A stretch of DNA of 64,000 bases from Spirometra erinaceieuropaei (taxonomy: Eukaryota > Platyhelminthes > Cestoda > Diphyllobothriidea > Diphyllobothriidae). Of this stretch, positions 4,801 through 61,790 are shown in pieces (position 1 is the first letter of the stretch; the number at the start of each line of letters is the position of its first letter). The stretch covers positions 860,734 through 924,733 of the forward strand of contig CACRXP010000034.1 in the NCBI GenBank assembly GCA_902702965.1. The letters are read 5' to 3'. The notes under the pieces were generated by a model. That model searched no databases. It was not told the origin of the DNA and worked only from the letters and a program-made list of their open reading frames with translations. The position numbers and the translations under genes are program-made.

Positions 4801-4885
4801 GAGCTGTGGTTGGTTCGGGAGTTTAACAGGTATAGGCAGAGCAAGACTAGTCGAAGGTCCAAAACCAGTTGTTTATTTGTCTGAG

Positions 4886-4916
4886 CCCTCAAACTCGTTC
4901 AGGAGTCCATCTTCAG
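4886..4916 (-). ncRNA. Degenerate hammerhead ribozyme core in PLE end
   Basis: On the minus strand CTGAAGA (4910-4916) is followed by a six-pair helix II (GGACTC with GAGTTT, two G-T pairs), then GAGGG where GAAAG or GAAAC is expected. AATAAA (4872-4877) follows eight bases later. The 31-nt core length equals that of the other copies. The GAAA box is mutated, so it is probably inactive. Confidence 0.6.
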
Positions 4917-5001
4917 AGATAAAAGTAGCAACAGAACCGGCGGGGATTATAGGTGGGGTGCCCGTCTATCAGCGGTCTATGGCGCAGGCGGGAAGGTGAC
5001 T

Positions 5002-5757
5002 TCGCGGAAATCCATATGCCGACACGCAATGTGGACGTAATGTCATCTCCTTCGTCCCGACACTATCAATTTCCTCCCTCTCTGCTTGCGCGGGGTGCAA
5101 TTCTAGCAAACCTTTCTGTCGCTTGGTGCATATGCCTGATCGAATCCCCCTTCGGATGGACAAATCTGAGACAATGTCGACATCCAGGCCATCGGCGTTC
5201 GGGCCAGGTGCTTGTCTGGTTGGATTAGGACTGCTTCCTTTCGAAGACGCCGACCCTCGCGCCATTGCATGTGCGCATTCCCGCCCGTTTTCCATCCATC
5301 CTCTCTTGGTGGAGAACACGATTATAAATCCCATACTATGTATATCGGTACAAGACAGGAGTTAGGAAGGAATAAATAGTCAAATGTCAAACAACCTGAT
5401 AGTCCAACACATGCCAGGGGAGTCGCGTCGAGTGCAGATCCTTTCATTTGGATAAACAAACAGCAAGTTCAAGAATGGTGGAGAGGCATGTCAATGCAAA
5501 ACAGTCTGGAGCCTCGGTACAGGCGTACCAACGCTCTAGTACGGACGCGGCTACTGCCATACACAAGGTCGTGGCTTACACAGTCTCGGACACATACTCA
5601 AGGCAACCTGTCCTGTGTAGAGAATAAACCTGTTCTCAGACCTTCCTGACTTCTGACATTGGACGGAACAAAATTATTGTGTGCGGTTACAGTTGATCTT
5701 ACATCATTGACCGCCACAGGGGTGTGACCAAACAAACATCATTTACGCCAGTCTGAC
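5002..5757. mobile_element. 756-bp insertion flanked by a 7-bp target-site duplication
   Basis: GGTGACT occurs at 4995-5001 and again at 5758-5764, immediately either side of this block. The uninterrupted PLE copy near 17280 has the motif once. That is the pattern of an insertion with target-site duplication. The inserted sequence has no obvious terminal inverted repeats, poly(A) tail or recognisable protein; short open frames on both strands look unremarkable. Confidence 0.6.
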
Positions 5758-6264: not shown

Positions 6265-6303
6265 GAGCGAATTCCGTAAAAACGATCGGTGAGCGCCCCT
6301 CTA
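6265..6303 (+). repeat. SINE1 tail fragment
   Basis: The block ending gagcgcccctctaccattg is the 3' end of a SINE-like family seen complete at 6340-6618. The same tail occurs at 22166-22200 and 27718-27753. Confidence 0.6.
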
Positions 6304-6339
6304 CCATTGTACATTCCCGATCGAAGCCGACAGGACAAC

Positions 6340-6618: not shown

Positions 6619-6789
6619 GGTAAAAATTATTAGAGCCGAAAGTTCATATATTTTCACGAGGAGTACAAGAAGATCATCAACAATGAATGCAAACTACTCG
6701 CTTTCCTTAAGTAGGCGTTTTAAGCATGTGTAATTTTTAAAAATGACGTCAGAGCCTCATCTACACGTGCCGCACACGCGGCAATCGGA

Positions 6790-7395: not shown

Positions 7396-7455
7396 CTCAT
7401 AGATATTTTGGCAAATTTCGATTAATTCATATTGACCCAACTGTGAAAAACTCGG

Positions 7456-7536
7456 CGCCTCGGTGGGATTCGAACCCACGCACTAAGGAGAAAGCTTTGG
7501 TACAGCCAACGCTCTAACCACCTGAGCTACGAGGCC
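7456..7536 (-). other. tRNA-like SINE2 head, copy 1
   Basis: An 81-nt segment with a complementary acceptor (CCTCG with CGAGG), a D arm GCTC/GAGC inside TAGCTCAGGTGGTTAGAGC (A box), and a perfect T arm GTGGG-TTCGAAT-CCCAC (B box). The anticodon arm does not fold cleanly and the region is about nine bases longer than a standard tRNA, so I do not assign an anticodon. It is probably a pol III promoter of a SINE. Confidence 0.6.
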
Positions 7537-7760
7537 CCGCCGGACGACTCGAGTTTAATCACATTTGGGTCAAGTTTACCCGCCTAACCTACTGCAACGT
7601 CTGGAATACACCAAATGTGATACAATAAGTTGACTGCCCAAGCAGGATTTCCTAAGTTTTTCACCTAGAATCCACCAGATGACTACCAGGCTCACGTAAT
7701 TCATAGATGTTTTGGCAGATTTTTGAATAGTTCATATTGACCCAACTGTGAAAAACTCGG

Positions 7761-7824
7761 CGCCTCCGTGGGATTCGAACTCACGCAGTAAGGGGACGGC
7801 TCTAACCACTTGAGCTACGAGATC
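7761..7824 (-). other. tRNA-like SINE2 head, internally deleted
   Basis: Retains the acceptor, D-arm and T-arm blocks of the 7456-7536 head but lacks about 17 nt in the anticodon and variable region. It cannot be a tRNA. Confidence 0.55.
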
Positions 7825-8040
7825 CGCCGGACAGTTGGGTCAGTATGAATTATTCAAAATCTGCCAAAACATCTATGAAGTACGTGGGTCAGGTAGTCAT
7901 CTGGTGGATTCTAGGTGAATCACTTCGGAAATCCTGCTTTGGCAGTCAACTTACTGTATGAGATCTGGTGGATTCTAGTCGTTGCAGTGAATTGGGCGGA
8001 TAACTTGACCCAAATGTTATTAAACTCGCGTCGTCGGTGG

Positions 8041-8121
8041 GGCCTTGTAGCTCAGATGGTTAGAGAGTTGGCTGTATTAAAGCTTTCTCCTTAGTGCGTG
8101 GGTTCGAATCCCACCGAGGCG
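8041..8121 (+). other. tRNA-like SINE2 head, copy 3
   Basis: The same 81-nt unit as 7456-7536 on the opposite strand, with the T arm intact and several D-arm and anticodon substitutions. It forms the right half of the inverted SINE2 pair. Confidence 0.6.
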
Positions 8122-8150
8122 CCGAGTTTTTCACAGTTGGGTCAATATGA

Positions 8151-8865
8151 GTTACTAACGGTTTATTAGTAGCCAGACTTTACTCATACCGCCCTGTCTT
8201 TGTTCCTCTATCTCTATCCGTCGGTTCTCGTAGTTCTTTGTTCACTTTTCTTTGTTCATTGTCTATTGTTATTTGTTGCCGCTCGTTTTTAAACCGACCA
8301 CCACACGTTGGTGTCAGTCGCTGACTGCTCGTCTAATCACCTCGAATGTATGTCCACTTGTCAATTTATTCCCTACCTTATTAACTCTATCGTGCTCCGC
8401 TAATCTTACCGTTTACTACTGCAGAACTACAAAGAATATCCGGGTTTATTCCGACTGTTTTCTGACATAGCCTTTGCCCTCGGGTGCGCCTAGTCCGGTG
8501 AATAAACTAGCACTGCATCGAGGGAATCTAAAGAATACGTGTGGAGTTTCCTTAGCAATGGCCTCGGAGGTTGAAGGACTGGGTCGGTCCAGTAGGGTAA
8601 ATATAAGCAAACTGAAATGTTCTGAGTGGCCAGCACGCACTTCGCCGGTCTTTCAATCAATGATTTGCAGCAGACCTCTCTGGAATATAAAGTACTATGA
8701 ATCCTCTCAACAGGAAAGGGTTTCAGGAAAGTGAATGGTCAGGGACAACACAACCACTACACGAAAAGGGCTCCCCAGATACAAATCCTTGCTATCCAGA
8801 ATACGGACAAATTAGTACGGGATAGTCTACAGGCCGCTTAATTCCCTGACGCTGTTCATTAAATC
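8151..8865. other. No recognisable feature
   Basis: Pyrimidine-rich, with short open frames only. I see no repeat partner in this window. Confidence 0.4.
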
Positions 8866-14389: not shown

Positions 14390-15632
14390 ACAATTGAGGG
14401 AAAACATAAGACACAAATAATCATCCAAGCGTTTCTTGAAGAGTTGCAGAGACGTAGCCTCCATGACTGACCGAGAGAGATCGTTCCATTTCTCCACTAC
14501 TCTTTGCGTGAAAAATTCAGAACGAAGGTTCAGCCTGGACATTATTGTCCGTAGCTACATCGTGTGGCCACGAAGATTGGGTGAGAGGTGCCACTAAAAC
14601 ATGTCCTCAAAGCTAATTGCATACTCAAGGCCATGTATTATCTTGTAGACGAGGATAAGATCACCTCTTTGCTGCCTGTAACACGGAGGGAATAAATTAA
14701 GGAAATTCAGCCTTTCTGTGTAGGATTGGCTTTATAGACCGTTTACCAGCTTTGTTGTCCGACGTTGTACCCGTTCGAGGCATGGTTGGTCCTTCATTAG
14801 CCACGGCCGCCATGCTTGTATGCCATATTCTAAGTGGGGCCGAACAAATGTGCCGTAAACTCTCCCAAAAAGGTCTTGGTCAAAGTTTACAAAAGCCCTT
14901 TTGATTGCATGCAGCACTCCCATGGCGTTTTTTGCAACCTTGTGGCACTGCAGTGTTGTTTTCAGGTTGTTCTGTGTCCAGACGCCGAGATCCTTCTGTG
15001 AAGATTCTACGGGAAGCCTTATATTTTTCAGGTGATATGTCCTCTGGCTCTCATTTGAATGAGAGTTGGTTGGACGCAGATGAAGGATGGCACACTTCTG
15101 CACATTGAAATCTAAAAGCCATTTCTTCGACCACGCTTGCAGTCGGTGCAAATTATCTTGAAGGGATATCTGATCATTCGGACCCTTAATGACCTGCCAG
15201 AGCTTAACATCGTCTGCAAACATTATTTTGCCGCAGTCGAGTTCCTCAAGGCTGTCGTTAGCATAAAGGATGAAGAGCAATGGTCCCAGAACTGAGCCTT
15301 GCGGCACACCACTGGTCACGTTCACCCATTCTGACATATCATCTCCGATGCAAACACGTTGTTTCCGACCAACCAGAAACGCTCAATTTGTGAAGAAGAC
15401 GTTGGTGTGGGACAGTGTCAAAAGCTTTGCGGAAATCGATGTACACGACATCGACCGAACAAAGATAGGCGGCACGTGTTCTTTCTTCAGTCACTGAGGA
15501 GATCAACGCAACGACGCATAATATTACGGATATAGGCTGCCTAGTATTCTCGACAGGGTTCACTGAATCATGGTGTATGTTACTAACCGAACTCTCAGAT
15601 AGAGTGCTGTGGTATCGGAGTAGGGGGACCAT
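14390..15632 (-). mobile_element. CR1/jockey-like LINE, reverse transcriptase and C-terminal region, disrupted
   Basis: Minus-strand frames give a LINE reverse transcriptase in the right order: VVYIDFRKAFDTVPHQRLL (motif A, near 15430), SGVPQGSVLGPLLFILYAND (motif B, 15330-15250), MFADDVKLW (catalytic motif C), WSKKWLLDFNVQKCAIL, then EYGIQAWRPWL and RVQRRTTKLV. Past a stop near 14732, the CR1-type tail continues in frame fragments (LNLFPPCYRQQRGDLILVYK) to about 14390. The motif-C 'YADD' is FADD here. Stops and a frameshift near 15339 make it a pseudogene, and no 5' endonuclease domain is visible upstream. The 3' end leads into a repeated cagtttattt tract at about 14210. Confidence 0.85.
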
Positions 15633-15639
15633 AACGAAA

Positions 15640-17085: not shown

Positions 17086-17159
17086 TTGTTCGTGGTCGGA
17101 CTTAGAAAGACCTTTTCGTATGTGAAGAAGAAGAGATTTCGAGCACTGGAACATTTTGT

Positions 17160-17720
17160 TTATTGTCCTGCGCCTTCGGACTCGTGCAGGAATCCATCGT
17201 CAGAGATAGTAGCAGCAACAGAACAAGAGCCGGTTATAAGGCATGTGGTCCAATCACCGACCGACGGCGCAAGACTGGAGGTGACTGCGCAGGGCTCTAT
17301 ACTTCGTCGCCAGATCGATAAATCGATTGACTGAGTTCTCATCCGAGGCACAGGCATCAATCAATTCTCGGCCTGTTTTGTTTCCGGCGTGGGCGACTAT
17401 TTTGGTGGCTGCAAGGTTAAACTCGTGACCCATTACGTAGGTGTGGGCGGCCACTTGTGCTAATGCGTCGCCTCGTCGCACAGCCAGCTTATGTTCGTGT
17501 ATGCGCGATCCGAGCATGTGCTAAGTCTGGTCTGTGTAGTTACATGGACAGTTTTGACACGGGATGCGATACACCACTCCAGATTGTTCTTCAGGCTTTA
17601 ACCGGTCCTTTATTTTCATGATCCTATTGCGCATGGGTGCTGTGGGGCGGTGGGCAATTCCAACACCTAGCTCCACTTCCGTTGTGAGGATTCACAAAAT
17701 AATAGTCTATAGCACCATTA
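17160..17720 (-). mobile_element. Penelope-like element 3' part with GIY-YIG endonuclease
   Basis: The minus strand reads VELGVGIAHRPTAPMRN, then GVVYRIPCQNCPCNYTDQT (start of the GIY-YIG domain), a stop, IHEHKLAVRRGDALAQVAAH, and AHAGNKTGRELIDA with ENSVNRFIDLATKYRALR. It ends in a terminal repeat carrying a hammerhead core at 17173-17203. It is the uninterrupted counterpart of the split copy at 4801-6015. The reverse transcriptase is missing, so it is 5'-truncated. Confidence 0.85.
17173..17203 (-). ncRNA. Hammerhead ribozyme core in PLE end, GAAA box mutated
   Basis: CTGACGA (17197-17203), then helix II GGATTC with GAGTCC (six pairs, one G-T), then GAAGG instead of GAAAG or GAAAC. AATAAA (17159-17164) follows eight bases later. 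CTGACGA satisfies the CUGANGA consensus. Probably inactive because of the GAAA change. Confidence 0.65.
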
Positions 17721-18552: not shown

Positions 18553-18938
18553 TATTATGCTTGACCAACTCACTAAGGGTGCAACAGGTCAGACGTGGAC
18601 GGTTATTTCACGGCTGTTATCGGTCATCAGTGCGTCACATTCCTTACTAGGTGAGGCATATAAACACATCAAGTAAAGGTGTGACCCTCACTGTTCTAGT
18701 ATGTGTCCGATGACACAGCGTTCGTTGTCGTCAGCACCAAGCTGACAGAAGAACAGAATGGGATCGAACGAGACCCCAACCACAACAGTGAGGACCGCAC
18801 GCCTACTTGACATGTTTATTTACCTCACTTAATAAAGTATATGATGTACTGACAATAGGTAATAACCGTTAAACAGCTGTCTGCGTCTGGCCTGTTGCAT
18901 TCTTAGTGGGCTACATACGTAAAACAAAAATCTTATTA

Positions 18939-21609
18939 TTTATATATATAAAAATGGAAGGTTTTTTTTCTGTGTTATAGGTAATCTCCGAAAGTACTGC
19001 ACCGATTGCGCTAAAATTTGGACACAGCCCGGCCCGCGCTTAGGGCTGGGTTTCTGTCTGTTCAGTTGTGTAATTATGCCGATGGTATGCCTGTGATGGG
19101 TAAAAAACCGGTTTTTTTCCGGCATAACAACGCCACCTGCTGCGTCCACTTGACCTACATCCGCGCGGACACATGTGCGCCCAGACTGTGGCCACTTGAC
19201 CGACATTCGCTCAAACGCACGTGCTCCGCCCGACAGCCGCGCTCACCCCACCCCCCTGCAGGCACTTGAGCAGGCCGAAACTGCAATCGCTGATGAACTT
19301 CATGATAAAACACGAGGTGTTTGGGTCTGTGAGCTTCTGGATGTATTATGGGGAATGGCAGAAGATGGGGACTGTCCCACGCACATGCCTGGATCTGGTT
19401 CTACAATAAGATCACCTCCAGCGAAATCACCCATGAAATATGCGCTGAATTACCTGACACCGACGCCGACACTGATTTGCACGAAGTCGCGGCGAAGACA
19501 GCGATCAGGGGAAGCCGTCGGCAAATTGGCAACCGTACGAATGTGAATCGGTGACGTACAAGTCGGTAACCGTTGTGTTGTTTGGTATTCGCCTTCGCTT
19601 TTAAAAACAAACGAAGCTCACATAAACGTGGAAACCCGCAATTCCGGGAAATGAATTTGGTACGTGAATTTGTAAGTACGTGAATAAAGGCTGCGACATG
19701 GCCGTTTTCGGCCTGCAACACGAAAGAAGAGGGAGGGGTGTGGACATACAACTTGATGAAATCGCGCAGTACAGTTAGAGAATGAGCAATGCGTTTATGT
19801 TACAGCTGCAAATGTGCAACAGGTTGCCTTAGGTCCACCGGCAACAACCTTAACCGCGTTCTTCACGGTAAGCCAAAATGACGCGTTTGCAAAAACACTG
19901 CTGCATCCGGAAGTGCCTACGTATCACATAGGGAATGCGTGTTGGAGGCCTCTTCCGTCTAATACGCGAGGACAAATCAAATGTGGATTTCACAGCAGAA
20001 AATCTACAACGAGGTGTTAATAATGATTGAGGATGTGTGCGTAGAAATCACGACCAAAAGCGATCTGCGGCTACTTCGTTAGACATGGATTTGCGGCGTA
20101 AGCAAACCTACAACAGGGTTGATCTTCTGTCGTAACTGCAATCAAGCATTCCTTAGCTTACACTGGGGCAGGATGGTATTTACGATCAAATAATGCGGAC
20201 TGCCAATAGCCGGGTTGGAGGAATCTTTTTGGATACGCCAGAAAGTGACTGGCAAAAGCGTTCCTACTTCGACTGATTCTGACAGCACTTCGATCCAAAA
20301 TTGGCATAGCCTCAACTCTTGCGTCGTCCGGAATAGCTGCGACCTTGCTACCCGGTGGAATAACTGCTCATTCAACTTTACAATTGCTGTTGAACGGGCA
20401 ACTCATTGGAACTCCTACGTGCGACATTTCCAAGACATCCGGTATGGGAAAACTACTGCAGAACTGCAAACTCATTGTTTGGGATGAATGCACAATGGCA
20501 CACAAAAATGCTCGAGGCCCTCGAGCGATCATTGAAGGATTTGCATGGAAACAGCAGACCATTTGGAGATGCATTTCTACTGTTTGCAGGAGACTCGGGC
20601 AAACACTGTCTGCAGTTTCTCGATCGACACCAGCCGACCAAATAAATGCCTGCCTGAAATACTCTACATTGTGACGCCACCTCCAAACGTTAAAATCAGC
20701 TACGGATATGCGTGTCCAGCTGCAAAACGACTGGACAGCTGAGACATTTTCACACCAATTACTGGCAATTGGAAACGGATCGGTGCCGGTTGATCCGACT
20801 TCAGGAGGCCTTTCACTGCCTATTACCATTGGCAATTTAGTGTCGTTAAAAGAAGACTTGGTTGAAAATATATTTTCCAATATCCAAACCAATTATAGGA
20901 GTCACAATTGGCTGAGCGAACGAGCTATTTTGCTGCTAAGAATAAAGATGTGTAACATATCAACCATGCTATTCAGTCTACAATTCCAAGCGAGGCAGCC
21001 ACATGCACGTCCGTCGACACTGTTGTGGAAGCAGATGAGGCAGTTAAATGTCACACAGGAATTTTGAATTCGCTTGATCTGCCAGGGACGACGGCGCGAG
21101 TACTGCAATTGAAAATCGGCGTGCCGGTTATCATGCTGCGAGAAATCAGCCGGCCGACGCTTACCAACGGCACGCGGCCTGCAGGATTACCATTAGTGAA
21201 CAACGTACTGGGAGCCAATTTCTTGACTAGGCCTTCTAAAGGTGAACATATCCTTATTCCTCGCATTCCACTGAATCCAACTGACATGCCACTTCGATTT
21301 AGGATACTGCATTTCCGGATTCGACTGGCGTTTGCATTCACGATCAGCAAAGCTCAGGGCCAATTCTCTGATTTGTGCGGTTTTGGATCTGCAAACGGAT
21401 TGCTTTTCACATAGCTAATTACACGTTGAGTGCTCCCGAGTTGGTATACCAGACAATATTTGTGTCTGCGCAGACAACGCAACGACAAACAACAACTTAT
21501 ACCCACAATTACTATGCACTTAAGCATATAAGAAACGTGTCCCCTTCCTCTTTTATTTCTTTTACAGTTCATCAGACAGAGCCACAGCAACGCGTTGCGG
21601 GGTACAGCT
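18939..21609 (+). mobile_element. Decayed Helitron
   Basis: The left end begins with a TATATATATAAAAATG tract followed by ctgcaccgattgcgctaaaa, typical of animal Helitron 5' ends. The right end has a GCAACGCGTTGC hairpin (21587-21598) followed by a CTAG-like terminus (GGTACAGCTG). Both boundaries are confirmed by the empty target repeat at 26.3-27.2 kb, which reads straight across. The interior keeps helicase fragments only, and I see no Rep (HUH nuclease) motif, so the copy is internally deleted and immobile by itself. Confidence 0.8.
19840..21414 (+). pseudogene. Helitron PIF1-like helicase, multiply frameshifted
   Basis: Fragments in successive frames follow the Helitron helicase order. 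FTVSQNDAFAKTLLHPEVP (about 19860) is the region upstream of the helicase. RVGGIFLDTPE stands where Walker A (GTGKT) should follow, and that motif is lost to an indel. Then come GIAATLLPGGITAHSTLQLL, IVWDECTMAHKNA (Walker B, DEC), FGDAFLLFAGD, GNGSVPVDPTSGG and finally LAFAFTISKAQGQ (the last helicase motif, 21320-21360). Loss of Walker A and many frame changes leave no functional enzyme. Confidence 0.85.
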
Positions 21610-22165
21610 GTTGCCAAATATAACAACTGCGGGATCTGTGAATGCGCGAAGACAACTCAGAAGATGGTGGCGCGATCGTCGGAGCGCGGATTTCATACAA
21701 AATTTAATTTTACTCATTTGTCCTCTCGCATTCCAATCCATAAACCACATTCGAAGAGAGCACGAGATATTGGCGGTGGATAAATAATTAATAGTAGGCA
21801 GTTTGCATGCAACCACAATCACAATTATCAGCTATCGTAATTTTCGCCGACGATATTATACCTTGCGATGACTTATCGCGAGCCCGCACCCTCTTTGTTA
21901 ATTACGACAATTACCTCCGCAATCCTGGTTATTGACGTGACAATTACTGGGCGATTTCGGCCCGCTGACAGCGGCATAACGACCAGTGCTCACCTGCGTG
22001 GCAAATTATTCCTGCCATGCCATCTCAGCAGAAAATATGGATGGACGTTTAGGTAAGTGAACTTGTTAATGGGCTAGAGGCCGAAGAATCACGATCCCCG
22101 CGGCTCGCGGTTCACGAGCTTTACACTCCTTGCGAGAATTTCGGTCCCATCGTACTTGACGGTGT

Positions 22166-22200
22166 AGACGGGTCCGTTAGAACGATCGATGAGCGCCCCT
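22166..22200 (+). repeat. SINE1 tail fragment next to PLE
   Basis: agaacgatcgatgagcgccc then ctctaccattg. This junction, continuing into the same gcaattaggagtctcgg flank, is repeated at 27724-27770, so two PLE ends share one flanking context. Confidence 0.55.
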
Positions 22201-22398
22201 CTACCATTGCAATTAGGAGTCTCGGAAAGTGCGACAAATCTTCATTTGTGCCATAAGAAGTTGAATAAAATCACTTGACGCTTCCGTGAGACGGTCACCA
22301 ATGTTTTTGTTACAGCGATACAGTCGGTAATAAGGATACTATTAGTTTTGAAGAAGAAGAAGACACTACCGCTGGGACAAGAGTTTTATTAGGCTGAC

Positions 22399-22429
22399 GT
22401 TTCGGATTCCTTCTCGAATCCATCATCAG
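22399..22429 (-). ncRNA. Hammerhead ribozyme core of the PLE terminal region
   Basis: The minus strand shows an intact core. CTGATGA (22423-22429) is followed by a perfect six-pair helix II (GGATTC, loop GAGAAG, GAATCC) and GAAAC (22399-22403). The next bases make GAAACGTC: ACGT is a palindromic stem III and GTC a standard cleavage triplet, as in dimeric type-I hammerheads. AATAAA lies eight bases downstream. Hammerheads are known from PLE terminal repeats; activity of this one is inferred. Confidence 0.75.
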
Positions 22430-22759
22430 AGACAACAGCAGATACGGGTTATTCACGCAAAAGGGGCTGCAGTATTTATAGGATGCAGTCGCCATGCTAC
22501 CGCATACATATGAACATTCACAGCTCCCCCCTTCATCCAGGATCGTTGCACGTGGTGTGATGACCGTTTGATGGCCGACATTCGTGTCGGTAATTGCTGC
22601 AGTTTCGTCACGTGCGTTGGTTGTTGGTGTGATGATTGCTCGACCATCTGACGCACCGATCCTGGTGTTGGGACAAGTGTTCACATGTGCTCTCCCCGCG
22701 TAGCTAATTACTCCGCCTAGGGGAAGTCTCAGCACCGAGTATGGAAGGGGAAGTCCATT

Positions 22760-24846
22760 TCACTTGTTAATTGACTGGGGGCCAGTAAACCATGGTTCAT
22801 GTAGCTCCCGGCTCACGTGGTTGTCACCTCTTGCAAGAATTTCGGCCTCATCAACGTAGAATGTGTGGCCGGATCTCGTCGAATGAGCCGCATCTTGAGA
22901 GCTGGCGTCATTTCTCCGCATCGCTGCAGCGTGTTCGGTCATTCTCCTTCGGAGCTGTCTTCCGGGTTCTCCGACGTAGTTGCTTTGTCCGCAACTGCAC
23001 CAGATCCGATAAACGACTCCAGAAGTTTCCTGCCATGGCAGTGGGTCTTTCGGTTTCATTACCTGACGCCTGATGGTTGCCTCCGGTCTGTGTGCAACTC
23101 CAACCCCAAGTGGTGCGAGAAGGCGGCCGAGAGCTTCCGAAACGTTCTTGACATACGGAAACGTCCGCCAAGATTTGTTGTCCGTGCGGTTAAGCCCTTC
23201 GTCCGTTTTGCGTATGCACCGGTTGACAAAGTTGCGCGGGTAGCCATTGGCTTTGAATACCCGTCGGAAGTATTGTAGTTCAGCAATCTTGTCTTCCGGC
23301 TCACTGCAGTGCGTTTCGACACGCCGATAGAGCGTCCTTACACAACTGCGTTTGTGGCTGATTGAGTGGTTGCTGTTGAAGTTCAGTACTTGCATCGTAT
23401 TTGTCGCTTTCCTGAACACTTTGATCTTTAGTCCACCACAATCTTTGCGGCATACGAGAACATCCAGGAAGGCCAGCTGGTTGTTCTCTTCCTCCTCCAT
23501 TGTAAATTAAATGTCCGGGAAGACGGCGTTGAAATGTTCTTTGAATGTCATCACCTGATCCATTTCGATGACGACGAAGGTATCATCCACATACCGGGTC
23601 CAGAATTTCGGTCTGTGGTGCTGGAAGACCAGCGATTCTAACCGTTGCAGGACTGCCTCGTCGATGAATCCCGACATCGGCGAACCCACTAATGTGCCCT
23701 TCACCTGTTCGTAGATTGTCCCGTCGAACGTGAGGTACGTCCTGAGACAGAGCTCAGGAGCTGAAGGATTTGAGCGTGTCCAAGAAGATTCTCCGTTTCA
23801 TCGTATTTGCTTTGTAGTAGCAGCTCGATTGTCTTGATCGCCAGGCACTGGGGAATAGAATTAAAAAGGGATGTAACATCAAAAGATACCACGACCTTAT
23901 TTGGATGGAGGCTTTCCCCTTTGAGTTTCTCCAGGAATTGTGCTGACGAAGAGACCGTGGTGTCTGACTCAGCGGTTAGGAAATTGACGCGCCGGAACAT
24001 CCACTTAGCCAGTCCGTACGTTGGAGTCCCCTTGAGCGACACGATGGGCCGGAGAGGAGCGCCGTCTTTGTGCACCTTAGGGAGACCATAGAATCGGGCC
24101 AAAACCGTATCTTGGGGTCTCGCCATGCGCCTGTCGGTCGGTGTTATTGCACCTGACTTCTCCAAGGCCAACAACATAGCATTAATTACGCGTGTCAGAA
24201 CTCTTAAAGGGTTCGTTGCACATGGGACATAGAACTGTCGGTCCTCCAGTAAACATTTGGCTTTTTGAAGGTAATCTGTCCTGTCCACTGCAACCGTGGC
24301 GCGCCCTTTGACCGCTGGCACGATGACCACGTCTTTTTCGACATTGAGGTCTCTAAGCGCATCACGTTCGACCTTAGAAAGCACTTCCCGCGGCCTGCGG
24401 GCCATCAGGAGGGACGACACTGGGTGTCGGATGAGTCTCTTAGTCTCCTCAGTTGCCTCCGTCTGACAAAGGATTGATTCCACTGCTGCAATCATGTTAA
24501 CAGGTTTGGCGTCAGCCGTGTTAAATGAAGCTTTGTGACGTAAAACCTGCATATGATCCTTCGTCAGCTCCTTTGACGACAGGTTGTGAACCAGTTTGTC
24601 GTTACTGGACGACGTTAGATTGGGCAGCTTTCGGAATTTGTTCTCCAGTGCTGCGCCGCGTATCATTCTCTGTTCGCGGGCTTGATCAGTTACACACTGC
24701 AGGAGCAGATTTTTACCGATCGCACCCTTTAAGTGTAACACGAACGGCTTGATTTTTAGAAGAAGAAGATTCTGATGACGATGATGATGATGATGATGAT
24801 GAAAGTATTTCAATTTGGATGGCCTCGCAATACAAGGACCTGGCAT
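22760..24846 (-). pseudogene. Penelope-like reverse transcriptase / GIY-YIG endonuclease
   Basis: The first frame (24846-23701) carries the PLE-specific region KDVVIVPAVKGRATVAVDRT, then LARFYGLPKVHKDGAPLRPI and VVSFDVTSLFNSIP (first catalytic Asp). A one-base loss near 23750-23757 shifts the frame; compare the other copy at 44290, which reads LLKFCLKTYFTF. The next part has GTLVGSPMSGFIDE and RYVDDTFVVIEMDQ (catalytic Asp pair). A TAA at 23507-23509 stands where the sister copy has Gln (DIQFTME). The same frame then continues through the connector (GVGVAHRPEATIRR) and GIY-YIG domain (VVYRIWCSCGQSNYVGE, RRMTEHAAAMRRND, EILARGD) to INK-stop. Only two lesions are visible. Confidence 0.9.
24773..24803. 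repeat. (GAT)n microsatellite
   Basis: Near-perfect GAT triplets inside the 5' part of the PLE frame, translated as a histidine run on the minus strand. A longer impure GAT/GAC tract sits beside the PLE remnant at 27955-28013. Confidence 0.9.
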
Positions 24847-25050
24847 ATTACATTGAGCTTATACGGTTCATGATTCGCAGGCCTACTAATGGTGACCCGG
24901 GTTAAGTAAACGCATCAGTGGAGAACTATTAAATACCATAATAGATCCCACTCACAAATATGAACGTCAATATAACGTCAGTTCTAGCAAAATGCATCGG
25001 GAATCGAAATCATCTATCGCTTCATTACAGAATGAATAACTGTCATTATT

Positions 25051-25899: not shown

Positions 25900-26300
25900 T
25901 GATGGAGGCTGCGGGCGGCTAGAATGCGACGCATCTGCTCTCCTGAAACTGTTGAATGAGAACTCCAGCAGCTGCAAAACACGCTCCGCGAAAATGGCCA
26001 TCCAGAGCGATTCATCCTCTGGAATATCAGACAGCGTGCCACAAAACCTGCCGTTGCAAATGCAGAAAAGAAAGACTTATTTCAAAGACTGCCTTTTCTA
26101 GGAGACGCAGCAAGCGAATTAGTGAGACGTCGCCTTAGCAAAACTCTGGCGAGTGCCTTCCACGCAGCGAACCTCCGCGTATTCTTCGCTAACTTCCCCC
26201 CTGCTACCGTTGGGCGTCAAAGACTGGCTGCCATTACAGGCCACATCCATGTGTATTTATTCATTCATCTGCTCCTGTGGAGCGGCATATATTATGCGTG
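25900..26300 (+). mobile_element. Penelope-like element fragment, plus strand
   Basis: Frames on the plus strand give KKDLFQRLPFLGDAASELVR, LASAFHAANLRVFFANFPP and then MCIYSFICSCGAAYI, the connector and the first half of a GIY-YIG domain. The domain is cut off at AAYI, where the U repeat begins. An inverted relative occupies 31263-31430. Confidence 0.8.
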
Positions 26301-27191
26301 ACCAACTCACTAAGAGTTCAGCAGGCCAGACGTAGACGTCTATTTCACGGCTCTTGTCGATCAACAGTGCGTCACATATCTTACTAAATCAAGTAAAGGT
26401 GTGACCATTGCTGTTGATGCATATGTCCAATGGCACAACGCTCGTTGTCGTCAGCAGCAAGCTGGGTGGGATCGAACGAGACCCTCACCACAACAGTGGG
26501 GGCCGCACGCCTATTTGGCATGCTTATTTACCTCACTTAATAAAGTATATGATGTACTCACAATAGGTAACAACCATTAAACAGCTGTCTGCGTCTGGCC
26601 TGTTGTATCCTTAGTGGGCTACATAGGTATTATAAAGATCTTATTTACCGTGCCATATATAACAAGTGCGGCATCTTTGAATGCGCGAAGACAACTCAGA
26701 AGATGGAGGCGCGATCGTCGGAACGAGAATTTCATACACAGTTTAATTTTACTCACTTGTCTTCTCGCATTCAAATTCATAAACCACATTCGAAGAGAGC
26801 ACGAGATATTGGCGGTGGAGAAGTAATTAATAGTAGGCAGTTTGCATGCAACCACAATCACAACTATCAGCTAAAGTAATTTTGGCCGACGATATTATCC
26901 CTTGCGATGACTTATCGTGCGCCTGCACCCTCTTTGTTAATTACGGCAATTACCTCCGCAATCCTGGTTATTGACGTGACAATTACTGGGTGATTTCGAC
27001 CCGCTGACAGCGGCATAACGACCAGTGCTCACCTACGTGGCAAATTATTCCTGCCATGCCATATCAGCAGAAAATATGGATGGACGTTTAGGTAAGTGAA
27101 CTTGTTAATGGGCTAGAGGCCGAAGAATCACGACCCCCGCGGCTCGCGGTTCACGAGCTTTTCACTCCTCGCGAGCATTTCGGTCCCATCG
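26289..27191 (+). repeat. U repeat, copy 2 (uninterrupted)
   Basis: A 903-bp block matching 18553-22152 without the Helitron. It reads from cctta gtgggctacataggta into aagatcttatttaccg and gccatatataacaag, so it is an empty-site allele in paralogous form. The last ~75 bp are PLE endonuclease sequence in antisense. Confidence 0.85.
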
Positions 27192-27290
27192 AATAAGCCG
27201 CAATCTGAGAGACGAAGTCATGCCGATTGGTGAGGATGCGATATATCAAGGGAATAGGATCTTTGTTGCAGCGACTGAGCATACTTCGTC
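27117..27290 (-). mobile_element. PLE GIY-YIG C-terminal fragment
   Basis: On the minus strand RHDFVSQIAAYSMGP and a following ARG/K-like block align with MRRNDASSQDAAHSTRSG-EILARG of the main PLE. The same sequence appears on the plus strand at 31440-31560 with less deletion. Confidence 0.6.
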
Positions 27291-27629
27291 TCTAATGTTT
27301 CCAATAACTCGCCGTGTCACTCATGTCGGCAGCAATCTCATTGGTGGCTAAATGACAGTGGCACCTGGGGACACCAACTGCGCCTTAGTTCTCGGTGCAT
27401 TGACGAATAAGCTGCACTTACATCCTTTCCTGTGACGCTACTTGTGAGTGACAGCACGCCGTTATAGCCTAGTCTTTAAGTTACCTTTAACATACGTCTC
27501 ATGGGTTATGCGAGGAATGATTGATGATGGCATGAAAAAAACGTTCGTAAAGTCCGCGCATGCATTGGGGATGATATCCAAGGCAGGCATTTGGAAGTTG
27601 TTACTTTCGAATATGTCTTAAGGGCAATT

Positions 27630-27760
27630 AGGAGAAGAATGTTATTACCGAAAAAGGCAAGGGAGACTGGCTGTGATCGAGAGAGAGCCTGTAATGCACA
27701 ACGAAACGAGTGAGTTCCGTAAGAACGATCGATGAGCGCCCCTCTACCATTGCAATTAGG
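27630..27760 (+). repeat. SINE1, 5'-truncated copy
   Basis: Body and tail of SINE1: ttaccgaaaaaggcaaggga, gcacaacgaaacgagtgag and gcgcccctctaccattgc. The tRNA-like head is missing. Confidence 0.55.
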
Positions 27761-27849
27761 AGTCTCGGGATGTGCGACAAATCTTCATTTGTGGAATAAG
27801 AAGTTGAATAAAATCACTTGACGCTTACGTGAGATTGACATCAATGATT

Positions 27850-28215
27850 TATTACAGCGATACAGTCGCTAATAAGGATACTTTTAGTGTAACACCAACC
27901 GCTTGATTGTTAGTAGAAAAATAAGATGCTGATATGGTGGACAAGAAGAAGAAGATGATGATGATGATGACGACGACGATGATGATGATGATGGCTATGA
28001 TGATGATGATGGCTGAAACAAGGAGTTTATTGGACTGACGTTTCATATTCTCTCTTGAGCCCATCATTAGAGACGGTTGCGGCGAGAATCCGAAACATCA
28101 GGCGAATAAACCTCTTGTTCCAGTGATCGCATCCTCTCCTTCTGAACGGTTTCCTGGAACTCGCCAATTTCCAACTGCAATGTAAATGCCTGAAACGGCT
28201 TGCCGGATCACACAT
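27850..28215 (-). mobile_element. PLE terminal region with impure GAT tract
   Basis: Matches the 3' end of the main PLE (22310-22440): gcgatacagtcg, ataaggatac, then a GAT/GAC tract (27955-28013) and a terminal repeat with a degenerate hammerhead core. The reverse transcriptase and endonuclease are missing. Confidence 0.7.
28040..28070 (-). ncRNA. Degenerate hammerhead core
   Basis: CTAATGA (one change from CTGATGA) at 28064-28070 and an intact GAAACGTC. AATAAA (28026-28031) is eight bases downstream of GAAAC. Helix II (GGGCTC with GAATAT) is largely lost, so the ribozyme is expected to be dead. Confidence 0.6.
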
Positions 28216-31271: not shown

Positions 31272-31430
31272 ATGCCGCTCCACAGGAGCAGATGAATGAA
31301 TAAACACACATGGATGTGGCCTGTAATGGCAGCCAGTCTTTGATGCCCAACGGTAGTAGGGGGGAAGTTTGCGAAGAATACGCGGAGGTTCGCTGCGTGG
31401 AAGGCACTCGCGGGAGTTGTGCTAAGGCGT
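31263..31430 (-). mobile_element. PLE connector and GIY-YIG start, minus strand
   Basis: Inverted copy of 26130-26300: FHAANLRVFFANFPP, GHIHVCLF, and MCVYSFICSCGAAYI, truncated at the same AAYI point and followed by the U repeat. The repeated PLE-U junction shows that PLE plus U moved or was duplicated as one block. Confidence 0.8.
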
Positions 31431-31645
31431 CGTCCCTTGTTATATCGCATCCTCACCAATCGGCATGACTTTGTCTCTCAGATTGAGGCTTATTCGATGG
31501 GAGTCGGCTAAACCTTCAATTACGATGAGACCGAAATTCTCGCGAGGAGTGAAAAGCTCGTGAACCGCGAGACGCTTGGATCGTGCTTCTTCGGCCTCTA
31601 CCCGCAACCGTCTCTAATGATAGGTTCAAGAGAGAATCTGAATCT
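31431..31645 (+). mobile_element. PLE GIY-YIG fragment with hammerhead core, plus strand
   Basis: The plus strand reads ILTNRHDFVSQIEAYSMGVG, a stop, TFNYDETEILARSEKLVNRE, then the terminal core at 31614-31644. It lies head-to-head with the preceding minus-strand PLE piece. Confidence 0.7.
31614..31644 (+). ncRNA. Degenerate hammerhead core
   Basis: CTAATGA (31614-31620), helix II AGGTTC with GAATCT (six pairs including one G-T), then GAATC in place of GAAAC. The same 31-nt length as the other cores, but no AATAAA follows. Confidence 0.5.
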
Positions 31646-31679
31646 CCTTGTTGTTGTCGCCCCCATCACATGGCTGCCG

Positions 31680-33409: not shown

Positions 33410-33526
33410 GTCAACGTGTAATGCGCGTAGACTAATCGATAAAATGGTAACTTCAAAATGCAACATGGGAATGAAAATGGAGAACTAGGCATGCCGAGGG
33501 ATTTCGAAACTCAAAAGGGGTTGGGT

Positions 33527-33826
33527 CTACCAGGGCAAGCTGAGGTTGACCACGTGGTCTAACTGTTTACATAGGTCGGGTTTCTCCCGCCGTATATAGG
33601 CTGCCTCCAGGTAGCGCAATAACCGAGTAGTTCGTGCTCGAACTAATACTCGAAAAGACGTCTTAGGGTCAACCGAATGGCCACTATCAAGGAGATGTTT
33701 TGTAATGGAAGACCGTGGAGTCTTGTTCTCCTGCTTTAGAAGCCATTTAGGCAGGTGCTCAACTGCTCTGGCTGCCAGTTGCCTTTGCGTTCGCCCAATG
33801 TACTGGCAGCCAGAGCAGTTGAGCAC
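33527..33826 (-). CDS. GIY-YIG endonuclease domain fragment (retroelement type)
   Basis: A frame of about 99 codons. CSGCQYIGRTQRQLAARAVE is the GIY-YIG core (YIG plus Arg and downstream EH in EHLPKWL), followed by SSITKHLLDSGHSVDP and LEAAYIRREKPDLC (Glu of the active site region), ending LSLPW-stop. The YIGRT part is encoded by the palindrome spacer, so only this strand has the full domain; the mirror copy (33755-34054, plus) loses YIGRT. The apparent start codon is GTG, so this is an internal piece of a larger retroelement protein, not a standalone gene. Confidence 0.75.
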   Translation of the reverse strand: MLNCSGCQYIGRTQRQLAARAVEHLPKWLLKQENKTPRSSITKHLLDSGHSVDPKTSFRVLVRARTTRLLRYLEAAYIRREKPDLCKQLDHVVNLSLPW

Positions 33827-34054
33827 CTGCCTAAATGGCTTCTAAAGCAGGAGAACAAGACTCCACGGTCTTCCATTACAAAACATCTCCTTGATAGTGG
33901 CCATTCGGTTGACCCTAAGACGTCTTTTCGAGTATTAGTTCGAGCACGAACTACTCGGTTATTGCGCTACCTGGAGGCAGCCTATATACGGCGGGAGAAA
34001 CCCGACCTATGTAAACAGTTAGACCACGTGGTCAACCTCAGCTTGCCCTGGTAG
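33755..34054 (+). pseudogene. Mirror copy of the GIY-YIG fragment, core destroyed
   Basis: Reads the second palindrome arm. It is identical to the minus-strand peptide from LAARAVEHLPKWL to the stop, but begins CSGCQLPLRSPNV, because the spacer is in antisense. It lacks the YIG signature and is non-functional. Confidence 0.8.
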
Positions 34055-34171
34055 ACCCAACCCCTTTTGAGTTTCGAAATCCCTCGGCATGCCTAGTTCT
34101 CCATTTTCATTCCCATGTTGCATTTTGAAGTTACCATTTTGTCGATTAGTCTACGCGCATTACACGTTGAC

Positions 34172-42535: not shown

Positions 42536-42559
42536 TCTAACACGTGTTAGCTAACACGT

Positions 42560-58085: not shown

Positions 58086-58354
58086 GCACCCCCTGGCCCG
58101 CAAAAAACACTTGTCCGGGATGTTGACCAACAACAGCAATGAGGGGGGCCGCAGATCGTCGTTGGGCTGGGTCCGCAGACCTTCTCGAGTTCTGCGTGGC
58201 AGACTTGTCCTGGCCTTTGTGTACCTGATCACGCAGGACATTGGAGGAACTGTACGATTGCTTTGTTGGTACGGCTGCGATCGGGCCCGAAATAGCCGAC
58301 CTCGATGATATCACAGGCCGAGTTCCTTCAGGCATGACGGTTCGTGGTTTAGAG

Positions 58355-59703
58355 TTAACCTCCTCTTCCACGCTTCCAACGGGATAATGACACTAGATCG
58401 AGGGCAGTAATACCTTGCTCCCGAGGTGGACGACGAAGAATATGCCTAAACCATCTCAGTCGTCTTTCTTGGCTGGACTGGATTATCTTTGCGATGCTGT
58501 CGCAGCGAGCGTGGACTGTCTCATTTGAGACGAGGTCGGCTTGCTTCACTCGAAGGATGGTTCTATGGGCAGTGGTGGTGAAATACCCCCAGTTTGCGTT
58601 CATTTTCACCGCGAGCAACTCAGAGAACGATTGGCCGGACGGATGAGAGGTACACGCGAATATTCTTGGCGATGACGACATCGCGTCGGCTCTACATGCA
58701 TTGCCCTGCTGGCTGTATCGTTTGGGGAGAAAATGTCGTCTTTGCATTGTCCATCCGGCAGCTTTCCCGACCTGAAGTACCTGAAACTGCCTACCTCTTT
58801 AATTTAACAGTCAAAAACTCTTCTGGTTAGGGGTGCAGCTCGAAAACACGCCGGTCTTCCCAGCGTTTATGGCTTCAATAACCGATTTAGAGACCTCATT
58901 CACCTTGGACACCATAGACTGTGGATAACAAAGGGGAAGGCGAAAGAAAAGTGATATCACCAGCGTGGTCGGGATCAGTCGACGTCCGGGTGCAAAGTCA
59001 ACACGGTCAACTTCGTGCAGGGACTTTCCAAGAATACAGTCAATGGCGTAGCTGAACAGGAGGGATGACAGAATTCAACCTCGTCAAATGCCAGACCGAA
59101 TATCGAGCGGCTGGGACAGATTGTCATGGGTCAGAACTCGTGCTGTGGTGGAGCGGTAGTAGACCTCAATCATGATAGCGATCTTAACCAGCGCAGCATC
59201 TAGTTTCATTATTCGCTACAGAGATTCCCGACGGACGGAATCGAACGCGGTGGCGATGTCAGCAAAGCAGAGGGCTGTTAGTTGGTAGCTACGGCAGAAT
59301 TCAAGAATTCGCCACAGTGTGAATATTTGGTCCCACATCCACACCCACCTCTCAATCCGTCTTGATTGGGCCTCGTATGAGACACACAGAGCCTGGAATC
59401 GTCTGAGAAGTCAACAACGAAGACCTTCACGGCAATTTTGATAAGGCTTATGCCGCGGTATTTCTCGCATCCTGTCTCATCTTTCTTCTCGAAGTGATGA
59501 CCAGACGAGATGGCGATCACCACATCATATCTACCAACAGAGTCGTGTGGGCCACTGTGACATAGGGTGAGGTGTGGATTAACTCCGGGGATCTTTACTT
59601 CCTGAGTGTCAGAGTAGGCAACTCGGACTTCAGAAAGGCAGCAGACACCCACGCTGTACCAATGAGGACTAAGCACTGTCAGACCTTGGGTACCAGAGTC
59701 CAT
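58355..59703 (-). mobile_element. LINE remnant: endonuclease end, reverse transcriptase, C-terminus
   Basis: Minus-strand pieces in the right order: VGVCCLSEVRVAYSDTQEVK (end of an apurinic-type endonuclease), CEKYRGISLIKIAVKVF, FADIATAFDSVRRESLWRIM (motif A, near 59250), LDIRSGIRRG-stop-ILSSLLF (motif B), AIDCILGKSLHEVDRVDFAP, then VKQADLVSNETVHARC and RRLRWFRHILRRPP, the C-terminal block common to flatworm LINEs. Many stops and frame changes. A small relative lies at 41700-41910. Confidence 0.85.
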
Positions 59704-61285
59704 GTGCTTTCGTAGATTCCAAAACTAACTACCAAATGGCCGCCCCAGATTGGATAGTCCAGTTCGTACACCAGTCGCCCGAATCACCAAATTAGGGTTG
59801 CAGAGCGCGCCAGTTTCCGTAGAAGCTGTAGCAAAGCCCGCAATAATGTAGTCGGTCGTATTTTCATGGTTTCTTGGGAATTGAATACAGGCAAGTCCCC
59901 AACGGCCAGTCGGACTGTCTGTCTCCTCTAGTAATTTGATTCAAGGGCCTAACCACGAAACAGTGATGTCAAGCAAGCCTATTTAGGGCTGGTTCACGGT
60001 CACCGCGTCACAGTACCGTCATCGGGCTCTGCGGTTTTTTATAAGGCTGTCGGCGTGCCAGATCCCAGCCCCCTGGTTTCTTCGGCGCTGTTGGTCCACG
60101 ACTGCTTTTCGCCAAACCCGGGAGTCTGCTAAACATCGCTGAAAGCCGTCTCACTATCTCCACCTATGGACGCGCCAGATAGTCAGATGTTAGGTTAGCG
60201 AGTAACTCGTATTCCTAGGTGGAAAACCTGACCATACTTCCGATCATCAGGGAGCGACCATTTTAGGCCGTGACAAATAAAAAAAACAGGTAATAGTTGA
60301 GGCGTGATGCTCAGATGCTAACTCCATCAACGGGTACCTTGCCCTTCCTGTTTTGTTTAAGTTCCTCAGAACTTCAACAAGACAGCATGCAGACGGAAGC
60401 CCATATACCGAAAAGCACACGAGGAAGGTTTTGAGGCACACTGATGAGTCGAAGCACTCGCAGCTGCGTTGTGGAGTGACACAAGATTGGCGCAACACGT
60501 GTGTCTAGGTCCTTAGCTAGTACCTGTGTGGTAAACCATATAATATCTTGCCTTTCATGCAGAGCCTATAGTCTTGTGCCACTACGTACACGAAGCTCAG
60601 GAAAATCCAACCTCGTGGAACTAGAGAAAGCGTACAGCAACAGCACGATGACGAACTCACTCGACGAAGGAGCAGCAGGGTTGCTAGACCGAACAACCTC
60701 TGCCGAGGGTCCCCCCCCCCTCCCCATCGAGATGGTGACTCGACGCACGCAACTTATAAGCCGGCCCAACATATCCCGAACGGATGGGACGAAGAACAGG
60801 ATCGATCAGGCCGAGGCCGACTAGAACAGCACGCTACCTTCATACTTTTTCAACTAAGTGCTTTGATGATGGTGATTTGGTCAAGATCTCCCAAAAATCC
60901 TCTCAATGAACTTGCTCCAGTGCGTCCATCTTATTCCTCAAATTATAATTCCGAATCTCTCAACATTGCCGAACCAAATCTACGGAATATTTGTAGGTCC
61001 GAGCCCAGAAACCAATTACGGGCGTCCACAAGTCCTGAAGCCACTCTATAAACTCGCTAGGTTGACTAGCTTCACCTGATACCCACACCCAGTTACTAGC
61101 GAGTAAGACTGAAGCCGACCACGGGTGAAGCCCCCGCGGTAACGCCATTCTGCCCCCAACTCCTATCAGACTGCACAGATAACATTTCAGGCCCTGAAGT
61201 CGCTGCAGTTGGGACATAGCCATTATCTCGGCTGCAAGTATAAAAAAGAAACATATGTAGAAGAGAATATGCGCATCCTAGGTTC
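59704..61285. other. No gene; R5 repeat piece at about 60450-60560
   Basis: gacacaagattggcgcaaca then cgtgtgtctaggtcc is R5-like. A C-run at 60711-60720 interrupts a plus-strand frame. Otherwise featureless. Confidence 0.4.
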
Positions 61286-61790
61286 TTGTTTAAAAGAAGA
61301 CGAAGGCACTATCACTGGGACGGTAGATTTATTGACCTTAGCTTTCGAGCTCACGAATGCTTGAGCACAAACGGGCCGTTCGCCACTCACACGCTGGAGG
61401 AAGGCCATGAGGTCGACTTCGCTAACACGCGGATATTGGCGCGTGCTGGCAACAAGACGGGGCGAGAAATGTTGGAGGCGTGGGTGTTGAACGCCAACTC
61501 TATCAATAGACACATTGATTTGCCTGCTTGTTATCACGCACTCCGTCCACGCAGCCAGGTAGCGCAGCTCACATCGCCGACCCGCCCGGGGACCATTGTG
61601 GGCCAGGCGGCACAAACCAGACCCAGCCACGTAGCCCCCCTTCTCTCACGGCACGACATAAACGTTCACACGTCGCTGCACTCTAGCAGTCTCTGATTAT
61701 GAACCCTAGTTCGAGTTCGAAAGTTAAGGCCAATAAATCTACCGCCCCAGTGATCGTGCCTTCATCTTCTTTTAAATTTTAAAAGAAGAT
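61286..61790 (+). mobile_element. Short PLE derivative: GIY-YIG tail between inverted terminal segments
   Basis: The plus strand codes for HTLEEGHEVDFANTRILARA, NKTGREMLEAW and NANSINRHIDLPACYHALR, the end of a PLE endonuclease. It is bracketed by two diverged inverted copies of one PLE end: 61291-61352 (antisense) and 61713-61774 (sense). The right one follows a hammerhead core. A further inverted piece (atcttctttt ... aaaagaagat) sits at 61764-61790. No reverse transcriptase is present. Confidence 0.75.
61693..61723 (+). ncRNA. Hammerhead core in the PLE derivative
   Basis: CTGATTA (one mismatch to CUGANGA), helix II GAACCC with GAGTTC (five of six pairs), then an intact GAAAG (61719-61723). 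AATAAA (61732-61737) is eight bases downstream. The same 31-nt core length as the others. Confidence 0.6.

What the first reader, a model, noticed from the sequence alone, without database searches (positions are those of the whole stretch)
4872..61737. Covarying hammerhead ribozyme core at six dispersed Penelope ends
Seen: at 4886, 17173, 22399, 28040 (minus) and 31614, 61693 (plus) the CTGANGA-like box and GAAAN-like box delimit exactly 31 nt. Helix II differs in sequence but still pairs in five of the six (GGATTC/GAATCC, GGATTC/GAGTCC, GGACTC/GAGTTT, AGGTTC/GAATCT, GAACCC/GAGTTC), including compensatory changes. Known: hammerheads occur in Penelope-like terminal repeats. Inferred: the motif was under selection while these families were active. 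Only the 22399 copy keeps both boxes and helix II intact.
Basis: partly seen in the sequence, partly recalled or inferred. Interest (0 to 1): 0.75.

Follow-up and report, generated by a model that had tools for sequence, protein, structure and literature searches.

The report
Tapeworm retroelement hammerheads at start codons
The six motifs are real, mostly decayed hammerhead-ribozyme-like RNAs at the ends of Penelope retroelements in a tapeworm genome that holds thousands of copies with an intact core, usually overlapping the start codon of the element's own gene; it is a rich example of something already described in other animals.

Summary
Observation confirmed, with corrections. All six copies are at the stated places. 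Rfam finds no hammerhead in the window. A covariance model from 52 copies elsewhere in the genome finds five of six at E 6e-5 to 2e-21 and the sixth at 0.055, plus a seventh (534-596) and a half copy. The genome holds 9,842 exact cores against 12 for the reversed pattern. Helix II, and more weakly helix I, changes on both sides across families; the six copies alone do not show this beyond shuffles.

New points: one nucleotide separates CUGANGA from helix II. It is the U of an AUG, so helix II and its loop are first codons of the Penelope ORF: the motif is 36 or 39 nt in 100 of 100 listed places, and the frame after it shows coding constraint. Inserts often carry two outward ends, one short and one long (9 of 14 pairs). 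The long end, about 111 nt into the ORF, matches the reverse-transcription start of an Anolis element. The source is Spirometra/Sparganum-like. Known kind, new member; cleavage untested.

The parts
22382..22441 (-). Best-kept hammerhead copy (boxes at 22429-22399): CTGATGA, T, GGATTC, GAGAAG, GAATCC, GAAA, CGTC
   Evidence: 80 bits, E 2.4e-21; one mismatch in helix I; core intact
22421..22423 (-). ATG embedded in the motif; its U is the nucleotide between A9 and helix II; start codon of the Penelope ORF in relatives (here in the copy downstream of the endonuclease)
   Evidence: sequence; frame and relatives
22760..23506 (-). GIY-YIG endonuclease end of the Penelope ORF, some 330 bp upstream of the 22399 hammerhead
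   Evidence: GIY-YIG E 3.7e-4, 21.2 bits, just under Pfam's cut-off of 22.6
23701..24858 (-). Penelope reverse transcriptase part, decayed
   Evidence: 79% identical over 218 aa to locus L012; no Pfam hit by itself
28023..28082 (-). Hammerhead copy 28040; G5 changed to A, two helix II mismatches
   Evidence: 46.6 bits, E 2.7e-11
28062..28113 (+). 3' half of an inverted arm joined head-to-head to the 28040 copy
   Evidence: 12.8 bits, E 0.39 (weak by score; its letters GAATCCGAAACATCAGGCGAATAAA)
17156..17215 (-). Hammerhead copy 17173; cleavage triplet lost; endonuclease remnant 17323-17670(-) just upstream
   Evidence: 32.1 bits, E 6.4e-7
4869..4928 (-). Hammerhead copy 4886; GAGG in place of GAAA
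   Evidence: 25.5 bits, E 6.1e-5; similar to the 17173 copy
31602..31661 (+). Hammerhead copy 31614, lacks the cleavage-site segment; endonuclease remnant 31413-31607(+) just upstream; opposite in orientation to 28040
   Evidence: match 31617-31644, 15.7 bits, E 0.055
61681..61740 (+). Hammerhead copy 61693; G8 changed to T, one helix II mismatch
   Evidence: 30.8 bits, E 1.6e-6
61289..61352 (-). Inverted arm matching 61713-61776: probably the other outward-facing end of the 61693 insertion
   Evidence: (I18, 91%)
534..596 (+).
   Evidence: 16.5 bits, E 0.03; side-by-side sequence with L077

Best explanation
The motifs are minimal type I (small) hammerhead ribozymes of Penelope-like retroelements (PLEs) in a diphyllobothriid tapeworm, in varying decay.

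Anatomy, shown by sequence: the motif lies some 330 bp after the endonuclease end of one unit and at the first codons of the ORF. The AUG overlaps A9 and the first pair of helix II, so helix II and loop II are codons 2-7. The predicted cut (GUC/AG) falls after nucleotide 28 of the ORF.

Inserts, shown in 9 of 14 fetched pairs: two outward-facing 3' ends, one about 70 nt and the other about 111 nt into the ORF, flanked by a target-site duplication. This fits reverse transcription primed on both strands at two template sites downstream of the predicted cut.

Inferred: two copies on a tandem transcript share helix III through the palindrome ACGU and cleave as a dimer, perhaps helped by the element's protein. 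Cleaved RNA loses its start codon. New inserts are made mainly from uncleaved RNA. Selection during activity kept both the reading frame and the ribozyme fold.
For: 9,842 exact cores against 12 for the reversed pattern. In the 100 listed: length 36 in 93 and 39 in 7, ATG in 88, T after A9 in 94. Pair counts on 52 copies: 95.0% of cells paired, 35 doubly changed cells against 6.7 shuffled, 0 of 500 shuffles as high in these two and in the covariation score; helix I pair col. 10-52 has types UG 34, AU 5, UA 5, CG 4, other 4. Coding: codons 11-22 are synonymous in 0.519 of single differences against 0.277 expected; the other two frames are near or under expectation. L083: a frame from the hammerhead ATG runs through RT (YVDD) and, past two in-frame stops, the endonuclease region; a second hammerhead lies 2,703 bp after the first in the same direction. 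13 of 120 listed annotated relatives start at this ATG, or one codon earlier, with the KRQ that the core encodes. Orientation of listed neighbours within 3.5 kb: 14 (-+), 0 (+-), 2 same. Direct repeats of 8-14 bp beside one short and one long end in 9 of 14 pairs; matches of 10 or more in 7 of 14 against 30 of 2,000 mismatched draws. The long end agrees with the Anolis PAc start sites, 111-118 bp into the ORF (PMC11167929, main-text section read).
Against: No cleavage assay. The lowest-energy fold of the monomer is not the hammerhead: -16.4 against -9.7 kcal/mol for the 22399 copy, -21.1 against -10.7 for the genome majority sequence. An unpaired nucleotide between A9 and helix II departs from the canonical junction, and Rfam type I does not match in the window. 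Most genome copies used were picked by an exact core, so core invariance among them proves nothing. The number of pairs with double changes does not beat shuffles clearly (33 of 500), and the helix I double changes at col. 10-52 (A-U) are one clade. 5 of 14 pairs gave no direct repeat at the expected places, and 8-nt matches are common by chance (397 of 2,000 draws reach 8 or more). 0 of 30 copies picked by flank start at the predicted cut site, so no trace of cleaved RNA as template was seen.
Confidence: 0.82

Rival explanations
1. The conserved structure is a plain hairpin, CUGAUG pairing with CGUCAG around helix II, that serves as a protein-binding or packaging signal; the hammerhead resemblance is incidental.
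For: It is the minimum-energy fold of both monomers tried; 96.5% of cells pair; the Anolis protein needs the first 172 nt of the ORF in its template (PMC11167929).
Against: Five of its six outer pairs never vary in A1 (the search pattern fixed them) and so are no evidence; the sixth (N7 with 16.2) is unpaired in 4 of 52. Helix I varies in hammerhead register. In Anolis a template starting at +20, without the 5' box, still works. Copies with G at 15.2 (4886, 17173, 61693 in the window; L048:2744-2803, L060:2038-2097, L060:2300-2359) have C or U at 16.2, 6 of 6, which suits a shared helix III and breaks the hairpin; they are few and related, and nine other matches carry single changes that leave 15.2 and 16.2 unpaired.
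Confidence: 0.12
2. Only the protein N-terminus is selected; the fold is a by-product of coding and common descent.
For: Strong coding signal downstream, motif lengths differing by three in the 100 listed, gene models starting there.
Against: Codons 2-7 vary without third-position bias (0.103, 0.154, 0.141 by codon position) while their bases stay paired (94.2% of helix II cells); three helix sequences (GGATTC, GGAAAC, GGGTAG) encode different residues and still pair.
Confidence: 0.05
3. Chance look-alikes in unrelated repeats.
For: No Rfam match in the window; 31614 and the half copy at 28062 are not significant alone.
Against: Counts, scores, endonuclease or RT remnants beside 22399, 17173 and 31614.
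Confidence: 0.01

Closest known systems
[quoted passage not shown] Lunse, Weinberg and Breaker 2017)
   Same: Location in PLE pseudo-LTRs, thousands of copies per genome, helix III reduced, dimer cleavage (passages of PMC6155905, PMC7761336, PMC6466107; the two original papers are not held, and I know them by title in reference lists and from recall)
   Different: Host here is a tapeworm; whether the nucleotide between A9 and helix II and the AUG overlap are described there I could not read
Poseidon PAc hammerhead of Anolis carolinensis (PMC11167929, main-text section read)
   Same: ORF begins at stem II; cut 26 bp (here 28) after the start codon; RT start 111-118 bp into the ORF (here long end at about 111); extension on both strands; tail between two start sites
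   Different: Here only sequence evidence; no protein or cleavage tested
Bdelloid Penelope elements (PMC3846280, passages)
   Same: pLTR reaches into the first codons of the ORF; tail of 31 bp on one of two inverted pLTRs; TSD of 8-10 bp in the cases described
   Different: Few copies; the search listing shows no occurrence of 'hammerhead' in that paper
Canonical type I hammerheads, Rfam RF00163
   Same: CUGANGA, GAAA, NUH, helices I and II
   Different: No stable helix III, extra nucleotide before helix II, no Rfam match; two canonical ones exist elsewhere in this genome (L001, L002)

Membership tests
Minimal (small) PLE hammerhead | CUGANGA and GAAA boxes with UH cleavage triplet | tested here: met
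   22399 copy: met; of the six window copies only this one keeps all. Genome: 9,842 exact
Minimal (small) PLE hammerhead | Helix II pairing kept through changes on both sides | tested here: met
   (52 copies; 4 of 6 helix II pairs have double changes); within the six alone inconclusive
Minimal (small) PLE hammerhead | Short helix I | tested here: met
   4 pairs, 96.2% of cells, two pairs with double changes, few clades; one mismatch in the 22399 copy
Minimal (small) PLE hammerhead | Helix III lost, palindromic 15.1-16.1 allowing a dimer | tested here: inconclusive
   ACGU palindrome fixed by the search pattern; 6 of 6 G15.2 copies have C/U at 16.2, few and related, against nine matches with single unpaired changes; the wider genome count did not complete
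Minimal (small) PLE hammerhead | Placed in PLE pseudo-LTRs | tested here: met
Minimal (small) PLE hammerhead | Self-cleavage | not testable with these tools
   needs an in vitro assay
Canonical type I hammerhead (RF00163) | Match to the Rfam model | tested here: not met
Canonical type I hammerhead (RF00163) | Helix II stacked directly after CUGANGA | tested here: not met
   one unpaired nucleotide
Penelope-like element (Penelope/Poseidon type) | RT and GIY-YIG endonuclease in one frame | tested here: met
   L083 one frame with two in-frame stops; GIY-YIG in window 21.2 bits, cut-off 22.6; relatives such as P0001 carry PF00078 and run in one frame into the endonuclease region
Penelope-like element (Penelope/Poseidon type) | Direct or inverted pLTRs, tail, target-site duplication | tested here: met
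   (9 of 14 pairs)

The most novel reading that the evidence does not exclude
The ribozyme is a mRNA-to-template switch. Its cut lies inside the ORF, so cleavage and translation exclude each other on one RNA. The element's own protein, once made, would promote dimer cleavage at the start codon, shutting off translation, and selection would then keep one stretch as both start codon region and catalyst.
Probability: 0.12. Interest if true: 0.75.

Novelty: new member of a known kind. Interest (0 to 1): 0.4.

Why it matters
The role of PLE hammerheads is called unknown in print (PMC7761336, passage). Here nearly ten thousand natural exact-core copies, several helix II families and inverted inserts with readable ends lie in one genome. 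That makes three questions testable by counting and a small assay: whether the start codon and the ribozyme constrain each other, whether helix III is shared between copies, and whether cleaved RNA is ever the template. It also shows that an Rfam scan can miss such copies, and that reverse transcription start sites found with a lizard protein agree with insertion ends in a tapeworm.

Tried and rejected
Rfam scans: no hammerhead. A helix II stacked directly on CUGANGA, without the skipped nucleotide: rejected. AATAAA as a poly(A) signal, my first thought: dropped, since it reads as codons N-K in the conserved frame, though a signal is not excluded. A competing reading frame seen (my script had placed the ATG one base off, so the ATG positions printed there are off by one): dropped, because common listed variants carry stops in it and the ATG frame carries the ORF. 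My guess that the host is an arthropod: wrong, relatives are tapeworm. Concentration of 5' truncations at the cut site: not seen in 30 flank-picked loci (these are 99-100% matches to the 78-nt query, so one young subfamily, and one of them, L037, is the query's own place); one inverted arm (L026) begins 2 nt after the cut, among 21 of 57 copies with arm hits. Six truncations fall inside the motif (L034, L036, L046, L048, L049, L055), too few to interpret. Long/short calls by regular expression were loose (labels both ends long in three pairs); I used the positions of the direct repeats instead. By eye I had judged 13 of 14 pairs as one long and one short; the report gives the 9 that the script bears out. 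Not done because the machine did not answer: genome counts of GAAAGNTC cores, of truncations at the cut and at helix II, and a genome search with the endonuclease.
Full report
What is in the window. Rfam gives no hammerhead in the window at gathering scores or at E up to 10, nor on the 22399 copy alone. The window is 64 kb of a 758.7 Mb genome. A pattern that leaves helix II free (CTGANGA, 8-38 any, GAAACGTCAG) matches it 9,842 times; the pattern read backwards matches 12 times.

Structure. The tool listed 100 of the 9,842 places (all on contigs C1 and C2, so not a random draw). 93 are 36 nt and 7 are 39 nt long, where 31 lengths (25-55) were allowed. With one nucleotide skipped after CUGANGA, helix II pairs in 90-96% of the 100 per position; without the skip the first pair forms in 5% and the fourth in 12%. 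I aligned 52 of the 63 distinct copies held at that point (A1); the eleven left out were L030, whose spacing did not fit, and ten near-duplicates. 95.0% of cells pair; 35 cells have changes on both sides against 6.7 in shuffles; 0 of 500 shuffles reach these or the covariation score, 2 of 500 the number of further pair types, and 33 of 500 the number of pairs with a double change. Related sequences inflate such figures, but three different helices occur: GGATTC/GAATCC, GGAAAC/GTTTCC and GGGTAG/CTACCC. The six window copies by themselves do not pass.

Model search. A covariance model of A1, none of whose members lie in the window, finds five of the six with E from 6.1e-5 to 2.4e-21 and 31614 at 0.055. 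It adds 534-596(+) (E 0.03), which looks like the L077 family side by side, and a half copy at 28062-28113(+) joined head-to-head to the 28040 copy (E 0.39, supported by its letters only).

Overlap with the start codon. The skipped nucleotide is T in 94 of 100 and forms ATG with A9 and the first helix II base in 88 of 100. Translation from there gives M-D-S-S-R-N-P-K-R-Q-A-N-K-x-L-V-P and similar. In 52 of 61 distinct 36-nt copies, kept because they align without gaps, single codon differences in codons 11-22 are synonymous in 0.519 of cases against 0.277 expected; the two other frames give 0.232 and 0.210 against 0.260 and 0.222. In L083 a frame opens at this ATG, holds YVDD, and after two in-frame stops reaches the endonuclease region; a second hammerhead follows 2,703 bp after the first, in the same direction. 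Annotated proteins of Sparganum proliferum begin at the same methionine, e.g. P0001 with MDSSRNPKRQANK. 13 of the 120 listed hits carry KRQ at that start; two more with the same start but KRQ changed appear among the first 40 of the 106 others printed, and most of the rest printed are models that begin further in. The Anolis element PAc has the same arrangement: ORF start at stem II, cut 26 bp on (PMC11167929). Here the predicted cut is after nucleotide 28.

Insertion anatomy. Among listed neighbours within 3.5 kb, 14 are head-to-head (-+), none tail-to-tail, 2 in the same direction; within 20 kb the figures are 18, 4 and 6. I fetched all 14. In 9 of 14 the longest match between the two flanks is a direct repeat of 8-14 bp (a few end bases of the element may be counted in) beside a short end on one side (37-44 nt after GTCAG) and a long end on the other (74-93 nt); the other 5 gave no such exact repeat. 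Matches of 10 nt or more occur in 7 of 14 against 30 of 2,000 mismatched draws from the same ends; 8 or more occur in 397 of 2,000, so the 8-nt cases rest on position. Counted from the ATG the long end is at about 111 nt: of 30 flank-picked loci 20 go on with GGC after nucleotide 108 and then differ. The short end is at about 70. PAc starts reverse transcription 111-118 bp into its ORF, extends both strands, and its tail is the piece between two start sites (PMC11167929). A tail on one of two inverted pLTRs and TSDs are also described in rotifers (PMC3846280, passages). So the inserts are ordinary for PLEs and suggest two priming events, one per strand.

Ribozyme role. Both end classes lie downstream of the predicted cut, so an RNA cut there could not supply those 3' ends unless rejoined. 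Of 30 loci found by the downstream flank alone (99-100% matches, one young subfamily), 24 keep the motif region uninterrupted, some with point changes; 6 are truncated inside it and none at the cut. PAc inserts uncleaved RNA in vitro and cleaves only with protein present (PMC11167929). My reading is that cleavage is not needed to make the template; its benefit stays open.

Rivals. The best fold of the two monomers tried is a hairpin in which CUGAUG pairs with CGUCAG. Against it as the selected form: helix I changes in hammerhead register, and 6 of 6 copies with G at 15.2 carry C or U at 16.2, which suits a helix III shared by two copies and breaks the hairpin. These six, three in the window and three of the 128 model matches, belong to related subfamilies, and nine other matches show single changes that leave these two positions unpaired, so this is a hint. 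The planned genome count could not be run.

Host. The L083 ORF has 1,124 hits at E 1e-20 or better; the best 120 are listed and all 120 are from Sparganum proliferum or Spirometra erinaceieuropaei, many above 90% identity. Penelope makes up about 10% of those genomes (PMC8166898, passage). No held paper has both 'hammerhead ribozyme' and 'Spirometra'; a wider search with tapeworm and flatworm terms listed 12 of 4,116 papers, none of those 12 with 'hammerhead ribozyme'.

Verdict. The start-codon overlap and the two end classes agree with Anolis and rotifer work and extend them to tapeworms.

Noticed in passing
L001:862-935(-), L002:1501-1572(-): Two canonical type I hammerheads over Rfam's cut-off elsewhere in this genome, with no nucleotide between CUGANGA and helix II, a long loop II and repeats around them; possibly retrozyme-like satellites.
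   Followed up: partly
33410-34171: Perfect inverted repeat, arms 370 nt at 100% with 22 nt between; weak miRNA-model hits there come from the foldback. Young insertion or assembly artefact.
   Followed up: no
7423-8154: Near-palindromic cluster with two tRNA-model matches on opposite strands (7455-7536 and 8041-8122) and a further degenerate copy at 7721-7801.
   Followed up: no
18553-22307 and 25916-27888: Shared repeat segments around a PIF1-helicase fragment (20249-20674), perhaps a Helitron; the flanks of the 22399 and 28040 copies are 91% alike (22173-22346 and 27716-27888).
   Followed up: partly
L034, L036, L046, L048, L049, L055, L006: 5' ends of some insert arms fall inside the hammerhead, several within helix II, as if reverse transcriptase stopped in the stem.
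   Followed up: partly
14732-15382(-): Reverse transcriptase fragment (RVT_1 45 bits) that looks like another, LINE-type element; the type is my reading, not a search result.
   Followed up: no
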